Below are positions 33,710 to 37,455 of a DNA stretch of 37,455 nt, in pieces. The DNA is from Dehalococcoidales bacterium (lineage in GTDB: Bacteria; Chloroflexota; Dehalococcoidia; Dehalococcoidales; UBA2162), in contig JAUYMF010000026.1 of assembly GCA_030698765.1 (NCBI GenBank), forward strand, positions 1 to 37,455, read 5' to 3'. The number at the start of each line of letters is the position of its first letter. Within the stretch, counting starts at the first letter, position 1. The notes below the pieces were generated by a model. The model had not been told where the DNA came from, did not search any database, and was given only the letters and a program-made list of their open reading frames with translations. A program made the position numbers and the translations under genes.

Positions 33710-33787
33710 GGTGAGTGTAGCCCAGTGGTCTAAGGCGCCAGGTTGTGGCCCTGGAGATCGAGGGTTCAAATCCCTCCACTCACCCCA
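33710..33787 (+). tRNA. tRNA-His (anticodon GTG)
   Basis: The acceptor stem GTGAGTG/CACTCAC is perfect. The anticodon stem CCAGG/CCTGG closes the loop TTGTGGC with anticodon GTG. The T-arm GAGGG-TTCAAAT-CCCTC is perfect. A G at -1 (33710) faces C73, the tRNA-His identity pair, and CCA (33785-33787) is encoded in the DNA. Confidence 0.95.
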
Positions 33788-34112
33788 TCTCTACCCCACG
33801 GAAGATTCAGCGCGCCTGTAGCCCGGCATACCGGATGAAGTCTCCAGGGACGTCCCCTGTTCCATTGTTGAATCACCGTCCCATTCTTGCTCTCTTTATA
33901 ACGTTTTTGTCACTTTTTTGTAATCTATAAAAGGATTCCCGTTCAAAACTTGACAAAATATGTTACTGAATGTTTTAATTTAGATTCATTAAAGTGGGGT
34001 AATGTTTTTTCAAAAGCAAAACCTCCACATTCAATATTTACGCAAGCAGGAGAGTCCCGTCATGAAATAATTAACATTGCAGCAGAAGCATTATCATTTT
34101 GGAGGAAGAATA
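33788..34112. other. 325-bp AT-rich intergenic region and leader
   Basis: No gene is seen. It contains the promoter at 33950-33979 and a leader of about 125 nt for the binding-protein gene. The stretch 33895-34030 is distinctly AT-rich compared with its neighbours. Confidence 0.4.
33950..33979 (+). promoter_or_regulatory. Promoter of the solute-binding protein gene
   Basis: A perfect TTGACA (33950-33955) and TTTAAT (33974-33979) have an 18-bp spacer, in an AT-rich setting. Predicted start is near 33986. Confidence 0.5.
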
Positions 34113-35807
34113 ATGAGAAGGAAGCTAAGCTGGTTGGTGGTAAGCTGCCTGATGGTACTATCACTATTGCTGGCGTCCTGCGCCCCGGCAACACCGGTGA
34201 CGCCAACCACACCGACGACACCCACTGCCCCGACGACGCCTACCACGCCAACAACACCGACCACCCCCACTACGCCCACCGGACCGGAGATGGTACAGGA
34301 CTCGCTGGGAAGAATGGTGGAGAAGCCGAAATACGGGGGGGTGTATACAGTTGTCCCGACGAGTGAGCCAAGAGGCTTTGACCCGGCTATCGTTCACCCG
34401 TCCAGTTTGACTACCCTGGTACAAACCCACGAGAATCTGGTAGGTACGGACTGGATAAAGGGACCAACCGGCACCAATAATGTTGGTTTCGACTTCAGTC
34501 CGTTCCCTCTGACTTTCAAGACAGGTACCGTGGCGGAGAGCTGGGAGATACCCGATGAAACCACTATTATCTACCACATCCGCAAAGGGGTCCATTTTGC
34601 TCTTGACCCGAACAGCGCAGCCAGCCGACTGGTCAACGGGAGAGAACTGGATGCTAATGACGTGGTCTACTCTATATCCCGCAACTTCTTTGAAGAGATA
34701 CCCAAGTCCTTCCACCGCTCTCGGTGGTTGCCGGAAGAGTGGCCGTTATCGGTAACGGCGCCGGACAAGTGGACGGTTGTAGTTAAGACCAACCAGGGAT
34801 TCCTGGACTCGGTCTTACTGTCAACTGCGGACTGGACGGCACTGATTCCTCACGAAACTGTCGAGAAATACGGAAACCTGAACGACTGGAGGAATTCTGT
34901 GGGCACCGGAGCATTTATGCTGACAGACTATGTTCCCGGTAGCAGTGCTACCTTCGTCAGGAACCCCAACTACTGGCAGATGGACCCCTTTCACTCACAG
35001 AACCAGCTGCCTTATCTGGACGGGGTCAAATACCTGAATATCAAGGATATGTCTACCATTCTGGCTGGTCTACGCACAGGTAAGATTGATAGTCTCTATC
35101 AAAAACTGATGATTCCCCAGGATGACGTTGAAAGCTTAAAGAAAACTAATCCCGAGATGAAGTTCCGCCAGGTACTCCAAAACCCGAGTGCTCTCCATTT
35201 TATCATGAACAACCCGGCCCTGCCCTGGTCTGATATCATGGTACGGCGGGCGTTGCAGATAGCGATTGACAGAGAGGCAATAGCCCGGGATTACTACCAG
35301 GGTGATGCCATGATACACGCCGGGCCAATAGCACCCCATGCTGAGTACATGCCGATGTATACGTCCCTTGAGGAGTTACCCGGGGATGTTCAGGAACTTT
35401 TTACCTATAATCCGGAGAAGGCCAAGCAGATGCTGGCTGAGGCCGGTTACCCCAATGGCTTCAAGATGAAAGTAACCACCTCAGACCAATATGATATCGA
35501 CCTGCTGGCCGTCGTCAAATTCTACTGGGAGCAAATTGGCGTTGACGTGGAAATTGATATTAAAGAGAGGGCCGTTTTTACCTCAATGACGCAGGGCAGG
35601 ACAGTCATGGAGGCAGGCTGGACTACCAGCGACGCTGACGGGCCTTACGCCTTTCACATGTGGACACCGGAAGACCCGTCCAGCTATGGCCAGATTGTTG
35701 ACCAGCATAATTATGAGGTTCGCGAAGAAATGATGAAAAACTACATGCGTAATGAGGAGGCAATCTGGCCGCTCATGAAGGATTTCTACGTCTACGCCCT
35801 GGAATAG
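34113..35807 (+). CDS. ABC transporter solute-binding lipoprotein, family 5, ended by an in-frame TAG
   Basis: This frame gives 564 aa. It has a signal peptide with lipobox LLASC (Cys23), a Thr-Pro repeat linker (TTPTTP, about 30-60), then the SBP_bac_5 fold: YGGVYTVVPTSEPRGFDP, VAESWEIPDETTIIYHIRKGVHF, VVYSISR, LTDYVPGSSATFVRNPNYW and RRALQIAIDREAIARDYYQG. Family members bind oligopeptides or similar solutes. The last 50 or so residues of the family are not in this frame but follow in phase after TAG (35805-35807). ATG 34113 has GGAGGAAG upstream. No permease or ATPase gene is nearby, so it is an orphan. Confidence 0.88.
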   Translation: MRRKLSWLVVSCLMVLSLLLASCAPATPVTPTTPTTPTAPTTPTTPTTPTTPTTPTGPEMVQDSLGRMVEKPKYGGVYTVVPTSEPRGFDPAIVHPSSLTTLVQTHENLVGTDWIKGPTGTNNVGFDFSPFPLTFKTGTVAESWEIPDETTIIYHIRKGVHFALDPNSAASRLVNGRELDANDVVYSISRNFFEEIPKSFHRSRWLPEEWPLSVTAPDKWTVVVKTNQGFLDSVLLSTADWTALIPHETVEKYGNLNDWRNSVGTGAFMLTDYVPGSSATFVRNPNYWQMDPFHSQNQLPYLDGVKYLNIKDMSTILAGLRTGKIDSLYQKLMIPQDDVESLKKTNPEMKFRQVLQNPSALHFIMNNPALPWSDIMVRRALQIAIDREAIARDYYQGDAMIHAGPIAPHAEYMPMYTSLEELPGDVQELFTYNPEKAKQMLAEAGYPNGFKMKVTTSDQYDIDLLAVVKFYWEQIGVDVEIDIKERAVFTSMTQGRTVMEAGWTTSDADGPYAFHMWTPEDPSSYGQIVDQHNYEVREEMMKNYMRNEEAIWPLMKDFYVYALE

Positions 35808-35966
35808 TCCTGGCAAATAATCATGCCGGCACCATACATGTATATCCCCTACCAACCGTGGCTGAAGGGCTATAATGGAGAATCTGTCACCGGTTATGGT
35901 GAGTATCTGGGGCAAAGCTATTACCTCTGGATTGATAAGGACCTGAAGAAATCACTGGGGTACTAG
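35808..35966 (+). pseudogene. In-phase continuation of the solute-binding protein beyond the TAG codon
   Basis: In the same frame as 34113-35807, the 52 codons after TAG read SWQIIMPAPYMYIPYQPWLKG... and end in YYLWIDKDLKKSLGY before a second TAG (35964-35966). This is the expected C-terminal end of a family-5 binding protein. Restoring CAG at 35805 would give one 617-aa protein. So the gene has a nonsense change, is read through, or contains a sequence error. Confidence 0.75.
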
Positions 35967-36000: not shown

Positions 36001-36030
36001 AGGGGGCAGAGCGTAACCGCTCTGCCCCCT
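36001..36030 (+). terminator. Stem-loop after the solute-binding protein gene
   Basis: AGGGGGCAGAGCG pairs perfectly with CGCTCTGCCCCCT (13 bp) around a TAAC loop. There is no T-run after it (CACTATATTG), so it may be a terminator of weaker type or a transcript-stabilising hairpin. Its position 34 bp after the second TAG fits an end of transcript for the full-length frame. Confidence 0.65.
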
Positions 36031-37320: not shown

Positions 37321-37393
37321 GCGCCTGTAGCTCAGTGGATAGAGCATCGGTCTTCGGAACCGGGGGTCGTGGGTTCGAATCCCTCCAGGCGCG
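37321..37393 (+). tRNA. tRNA-Arg (anticodon TCG)
   Basis: The acceptor stem GCGCCTG/CAGGCGC is perfect, and the D-stem is GCTC/GAGC. The anticodon stem TCGGT/ACCGG closes loop CTTCGGA with anticodon TCG (reads CGA). The T-loop is TTCGAAT with one T-T mismatch in its stem. The discriminator is G, and CCA is not encoded, unlike the tRNA-His gene. Confidence 0.93.
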
Positions 37394-37455
37394 CTGGTTC
37401 GTGAAAACTCAGTCGGCAGAAAATAGCGGGCAATAATCCAAAATAAAAATGCCAG

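What the first reader, a model, noticed from the sequence alone, without database searches (positions are those of the whole stretch)
35805..35966. Family-5 binding protein interrupted by an in-frame TAG, with an intact C-terminus behind it
The 52 codons after TAG encode the expected family ending in phase, and a 13-bp stem-loop follows the second stop. A CAG-to-TAG change explains it simply. Recoding or readthrough is possible, but several other genes here end in TAG, so TAG is a normal stop. The lack of decay after the TAG suggests a very recent mutation, strain variation, or functional readthrough.
Basis: partly seen in the sequence, partly recalled or inferred. Interest (0 to 1): 0.5.

Follow-up and report, generated by a model that had tools for sequence, protein, structure and literature searches.

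The report
Transport gene with recent stop mutation
One of many similar nutrient-binding protein genes in an uncultured Chloroflexota bacterium carries a single premature stop codon, most likely a recent ordinary mutation and not a new kind of genetic decoding.

Summary
A family-5 (SBP_bac_5) lipoprotein gene at 34113-35966 has an in-frame TAG at 35805-35807, then 52 intact family codons, a second TAG, and a 13-bp hairpin. The interrupted codon is Gln in 43 of 56 homologues, CAG in 32. Of 144 family matches in 14 genomes, only this one is interrupted. TAG is an ordinary stop: 90 of 268 surveyed ORFs end in it, and an intact RF1 gene is present. The assembly shows no PylS over cut-off, no MttB and no CTA-anticodon tRNA among 39 found. 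The 52 lost residues are confidently modelled and hold the last long strand, so truncation should inactivate the protein. This copy lacks the aldehyde ferredoxin oxidoreductase neighbour that 10 of 17 paralogue places have within 350 bp. A second gene of the assembly has one internal TGA. The best reading is a very recent or still segregating nonsense mutation in a redundant paralogue. A consensus error is the main rival. Readthrough has no positive evidence. It is ordinary.

The parts
34101..34106 (+). Shine-Dalgarno-like GGAGGA just before the ATG
   Evidence: read directly
34113..35804 (+). Family-5 solute-binding lipoprotein, residues 1-564 (hydrophobic N-terminus with LLASC motif, Pro/Thr linker, SBP_bac_5 domain at residues 140-520)
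   Evidence: model aligns with E. coli DppA over residues 76-608, Z 30.5
35805..35807 (+). In-frame premature TAG, codon 565
   Evidence: Gln in 43 of 56 homologues at this column
35808..35963 (+). 52 intact codons of the family C-terminus (strands 568-570 and 573-580, helix 609-614 in the model)
35964..35966 (+). Second stop TAG, at the family's usual end
36001..36030 (+). 13-bp hairpin with 4-nt loop after the gene; possible transcript end, no U-tract

Best explanation
This is a very recently interrupted gene: a single nonsense substitution (probably from the family's glutamine codon) in one of about two dozen family-5 solute-binding lipoprotein paralogues. It may still be segregating in the sampled population. 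Translation should end at the TAG through RF1 and give a 564-residue protein without its last 52 residues, including the last long strand of the model. That product is expected to be misfolded or inactive. The loss is probably tolerated because paralogues (64% identity and below) exist and this copy lacks the enzyme-gene neighbour that most paralogues have. Shown: the stop, the intact tail, the paralogues, RF1, and that no suppressor machinery was detected. Inferred: loss of function, recency and redundancy.
For: Interrupted column is Gln in 43 of 56 homologues, CAG 32 and CAA 11. Only 1 of 144 family matches, in 14 of 61 genomes searched, has an internal stop. 23 SBP_bac_5 places in the genome. 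TAG ends 90 of 268 ORFs surveyed; RF1 and RF2 over their NCBIfam cut-offs. No PylS over cut-off, no MttB, no CTA anticodon among 39 tRNAs; the CTA-tRNA pattern met only the tRNA-Arg(UCU) gene. Tail modelled at pLDDT 92-97 per block, with strand 573-580. The same assembly has another singly interrupted gene, an AFOR with TGA at codon 301, so isolated nonsense codons of different kinds occur in it.
Against: No decay behind the stop: tail identity is as high as elsewhere, which also fits an error or readthrough. The tail's relative terminal branch is 1.55 times that of the rest, longer than in 43 of 53 sequences, the query counted among them: neither clearly relaxed nor clearly constrained, and 52 codons give little power. 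No reads, so a base-calling or assembly error is not excluded. Loss of function of the truncated protein is inferred, not measured.
Confidence: 0.72

Rival explanations
1. The TAG is an error or a minority-strain base in the consensus of a metagenome bin; the organism's gene is intact.
For: The assembly is fragmented (190 contigs, 4.93% contamination), which fits a metagenome bin. The tail is undecayed and no other family match carries the stop.
Against: Two interior nonsense codons turned up in a survey of about 342 kb, more than I would expect from short-read consensus substitutions alone (my rough estimate, no tool). No frameshift is seen in this gene.
Confidence: 0.15
2. The TAG is real and partly read through by near-cognate tRNAs, giving a small amount of full-length lipoprotein, either tolerated or used.
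For: Tail intact and in phase; a Gln tRNA with anticodon CTG, one base from reading TAG, exists.
Against: RF1 present. No internal stop in any of the 143 other family matches. RNA behind the stop folds no better than shuffles (z 0.36).
Confidence: 0.06
3. The truncated 564-residue protein is itself functional and the tail is dispensable.
For: The Pfam domain match ends at residue 520, before the stop.
Against: The tail spans columns 572, 580, 582, 583, 585, 589, 606, 608 and 616, each at least 90% conserved in 44 sequences (at 580 this protein has Tyr for the usual Trp). It is confidently modelled, and most of the 50 listed solved chains align up to residues 605-617 of the model.
Confidence: 0.06
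4. UAG is decoded as pyrrolysine or by a dedicated suppressor tRNA.
For: None beyond the in-frame TAG; tRNA-Tyr and tRNA-Phe were not found either, so the tRNA list is incomplete.
Against: No PylS over cut-off, which 1 of the 14 control genomes passed. No MttB. No CTA anticodon among 39 tRNAs. One third of surveyed ORFs end in TAG. The site is mostly a plain Gln column in a binding protein.
Confidence: 0.01

Closest known systems
SBP_bac_5 (PF00496) solute-binding lipoproteins of the DppA/OppA/NikA fold
   Same: Pfam E 1.7e-58; VIA-align Z 30.5 to E. coli DppA over 474 residues, rmsd 2.5, tied with other binding proteins
   Different: Single in-frame TAG at codon 565; no NCBIfam equivalog cut-off reached, so the ligand is unassigned
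Nascent (single-lesion) bacterial pseudogenes (recalled as a kind)
   Same: One nonsense change, no further lesion, intact paralogues in the genome
   Different: Fixation in the population is unknown because no reads are available
Pyrrolysine-containing methyltransferase genes with in-frame amber codons (passages of PMC8318568 seen)
   Same: In-frame TAG followed by conserved coding sequence
   Different: No pyrrolysyl-tRNA synthetase over cut-off, no amber tRNA and no MttB found; the site is an ordinary Gln column

Membership tests
Family-5 solute-binding protein (SBP_bac_5) | Match to PF00496 above the curated cut-off | tested here: met
   199 bits against cut-off 32.4 (read through the TAG); the genome search, whose match lies wholly before the TAG, gives 200.3 bits
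Family-5 solute-binding protein (SBP_bac_5) | Fold of the DppA/OppA/NikA binding proteins | tested here: met
   model pLDDT 90.4; best Z 30.5; the 50 listed rows are described as binding or transport proteins
Nascent pseudogene (nonsense) | Premature stop absent from homologues | tested here: met
   1 of 144 matches interrupted
Nascent pseudogene (nonsense) | Loss of function and relaxed constraint behind the stop | tested here: inconclusive
   tail identity not lowered; branch ratio 1.55, above 43 of 53; function itself not testable here
Pyrrolysine-decoding organism | PylS | tested here: not met
   best 16.1 bits against cut-off 178.15; assembly 96.79% complete
Pyrrolysine-decoding organism | tRNA with CTA anticodon | tested here: not met
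   none among 39 tRNAs; pattern scan met only tRNA-Arg(UCU). tRNA-Pyl is atypical and could escape these searches
Pyrrolysine-decoding organism | PylB, PylC, PylD | not tested
   no search was made for these three
UAG-reassigned code | RF1 lost and TAG rare as a stop | tested here: not met
   RF1 at 528.9 bits against cut-off 423.25; 90 of 268 ORFs end in TAG

The most novel reading that the evidence does not exclude
The TAG acts as a leaky stop, so that a small share of ribosomes makes the full-length binding protein and most make a short form: a readthrough-regulated lipoprotein in a Chloroflexota lineage that expands this family.
Probability: 0.03. Interest if true: 0.5.

Novelty: new member of a known kind. 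Interest (0 to 1): 0.1.

Why it matters
It matters little in itself: one paralogue of a large transporter-component family has a premature stop. It would matter only if the stop were read through, which would be an unusual way to tune a lipoprotein. As a negative result it shows that TAG is an ordinary stop in this organism and that an undecayed tail alone is weak evidence for recoding.

Tried and rejected
Pyrrolysine and suppressor tRNA: searched and not found. The weak PylS rows are far below cut-off, and all 14 control genomes give rows at that loose threshold, with one over the cut-off. PylB, PylC and PylD were not searched. Global TAG reassignment: rejected on stop usage and RF1. A 3' RNA structure behind the stop: not supported.

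Family-wide recoding: one search listed 12 AFOR-family rows with one 'stop inside', which looked like a pattern. Reading them showed that 11 of the 12 are natural stops within the last few residues of the match; only the own-genome row is internal.

Selenocysteine for that AFOR gene: not supported, but not closed. The best tRNA-Sec row reaches 46.9 bits against the cut-off of 47, only just below. It is the place that ARAGORN calls tRNA-Ser with anticodon TGA, not a Sec tRNA. The AFOR site is variable and Cys in 3 of 53 aligned rows, a few of which are the same gene fetched twice. SelA and SelB were not searched.

Split-gene survey. The ORFs are those of 100 or more residues with a coding-like codon score and at most 20% overlap, in 342 kb. 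The stretches are not random: I chose contigs that had shown an SBP, ABC-transporter or tRNA hit. 64 of 268 ORFs, the window gene included, have an in-frame extension of 30 or more codons; 20 others were scanned with Pfam. One (AFOR) has a domain spanning the stop. L148:12911-15247 at first also had a membrane domain running 25 residues past its TAA, but an ATG follows the TAA directly and the first gene scores better alone, 52.7 against 44.8 bits, so these are two genes. 12 more have separate domains on the two sides, 3 show a domain chiefly on the first side (L137:348-1532, L133:4140-5000, window:19486-22044), and 3 have no family or only weak rows behind the stop (L133:6-503, L144:2713-3444, window:10411-12642). 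43 candidates were not scanned.

Rows dropped before the count of 56 homologues: of 92 BLAST rows, 13 ended before residue 612 and 23 repeated a tail already kept. The tree uses the 53 sequences, query included, that cover enough of the alignment.

Literature: three searches gave no paper or one off-topic paper seen only as a listing. The search for pyrrolysine with Chloroflexi gave PMC8318568, of which I saw passages; its one Chloroflexi mention there is about selenocysteine. One search listed two papers that I did not open. The sequence search of solved structures gave the same family as the fold search.

Full report
Observation. The frame from ATG 34113 runs to TAG at 35805-35807 (564 residues). 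The same frame then continues for 52 codons to TAG at 35964-35966. There is no other stop in the frame. A 13-bp hairpin lies at 36001-36030 (-28.8 kcal/mol, z -7.0). No run of T follows it and the terminator scan did not list it.

Identity. The protein is an SBP_bac_5 solute-binding protein with a hydrophobic N-terminus, an LLASC motif (a lipobox as I recall the motif) and a Pro/Thr-rich linker. AlphaFold gives mean pLDDT 90.4. The model aligns with E. coli DppA at Z 30.5, rmsd 2.5, 474 residues, tied with other binding proteins. No NCBIfam equivalog cut-off is met, so the ligand is unknown.

Genome. The window is contig 26 of a 1.94-Mb, 190-contig assembly, 96.79% complete and 4.93% contaminated. 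The three named loci found by protein come from two groundwater Chloroflexi bins, which supports Chloroflexota. The genome holds 23 SBP_bac_5 places, 22 of them over the cut-off. The nearest relative is a paralogue at 64% identity; the nearest in another genome is 62%. A search of 156 genomes of the order found nothing nearer.

The interrupted site. In 56 homologues the column is Gln in 43, Lys in 4, Glu, Asn and Ser in 2 each, and Leu, Arg and Asp in 1 each; the Gln codons are CAG in 32 and CAA in 11. A one-step change from the Gln codon is the simplest origin, but among the closest homologues two have Lys and one has Glu, so the parent codon is inferred. Of 144 family matches (sum of the per-genome counts) in 14 of 61 genomes, only this one has an internal stop (in genomes with many candidates only the first 21 were scored).

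What the stop removes. Residue 565 is the last residue of helix 548-565 in the model. The lost part contains strands 568-570 and 573-580 and helix 609-614 at high confidence. It also holds nine columns conserved in at least 90% of 44 sequences. One of them, 580, is Tyr here where 52 of 56 homologues have Trp; 3 others share the Tyr. Loss of function is expected but was not tested.

Decay. Identity behind the stop equals identity before it for the nearest relatives: 31/52 against 298/483, and 32/52 against 290/481. On a fixed tree of 53 sequences the query's terminal branch, relative to the whole tree, is 1.55 times as long for the tail as for the rest; 43 of the 53 lie below it. This is on the high side but not outstanding, and 52 codons carry little power. 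Recent loss, segregating variation, an error and readthrough all fit this.

Is TAG a stop here? In 268 ORFs from 342 kb, TAA ends 92, TAG 90 and TGA 86 (the interrupted genes are counted by their first stop). RF1 and RF2 are both present as full-length genes. No PylS passes the curated cut-off and MttB is not found. Of 39 tRNAs none has a CTA anticodon, and a pattern for class-I CTA tRNAs met only the tRNA-Arg(UCU) gene. tRNA-Tyr and tRNA-Phe were not seen either, so the tRNA list is incomplete and the absence is strong but not absolute.

Context. Of the 17 other SBP places of the genome listed, 10 have an aldehyde ferredoxin oxidoreductase (AFOR) gene on the same strand within about 350 bp. 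Two more have one 1.2 and 1.5 kb away, and three of the remaining lie at contig ends, where a neighbour could be missing. The window copy has none in the window: a tRNA-His gene and YceD lie upstream, and a PF03601 gene and tRNA-Arg downstream. An unpaired, redundant copy is a plausible place for a tolerated nonsense mutation (inference).

Base rate. In the same survey an AFOR gene (contig 81, 1462-3429) has one internal TGA at codon 301, inside the AFOR_C domain. The site is variable. No tRNA-Sec passes its cut-off, though the best row is only 0.1 bit below it; that place is a tRNA-Ser. So single nonsense codons with undecayed tails occur in this assembly: two known in a non-random 342-kb survey of which 20 of 63 further candidates were scanned. 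This favours recent mutations or population variation over TAG-specific recoding, and makes the finding ordinary.

Verdict. A consensus error remains possible and needs reads.

Noticed in passing
L135:1462-3429 (G000:C81), TGA at 2362-2364: An aldehyde ferredoxin oxidoreductase gene of the same assembly is interrupted by one in-frame TGA at codon 301 with 355 intact codons behind it. The site is variable in 53 aligned rows; no tRNA-Sec over cut-off, best row 46.9 against 47 at a tRNA-Ser gene.
   Followed up: partly
G000 contigs C33, C34, C40, C48, C76, C84, C136, C145, C167, C183: Family-5 binding-protein genes and AFOR-family genes sit side by side on the same strand (gaps under about 350 bp) in 10 places of this genome, an expansion of a binding-protein plus AFOR gene pair. 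No held paper joins the terms Dehalococcoidia, aldehyde ferredoxin oxidoreductase and solute-binding (that the lineage is Dehalococcoidia is my guess).
   Followed up: partly
window 33711-33787 and 37321-37394: The interrupted gene lies between a tRNA-His and a tRNA-Arg(TCG) gene; a second tRNA-Arg(TCG) is on contig C116.
   Followed up: no
window 36001-36030: Very stable 13-bp hairpin without a U-tract behind the gene.
   Followed up: partly
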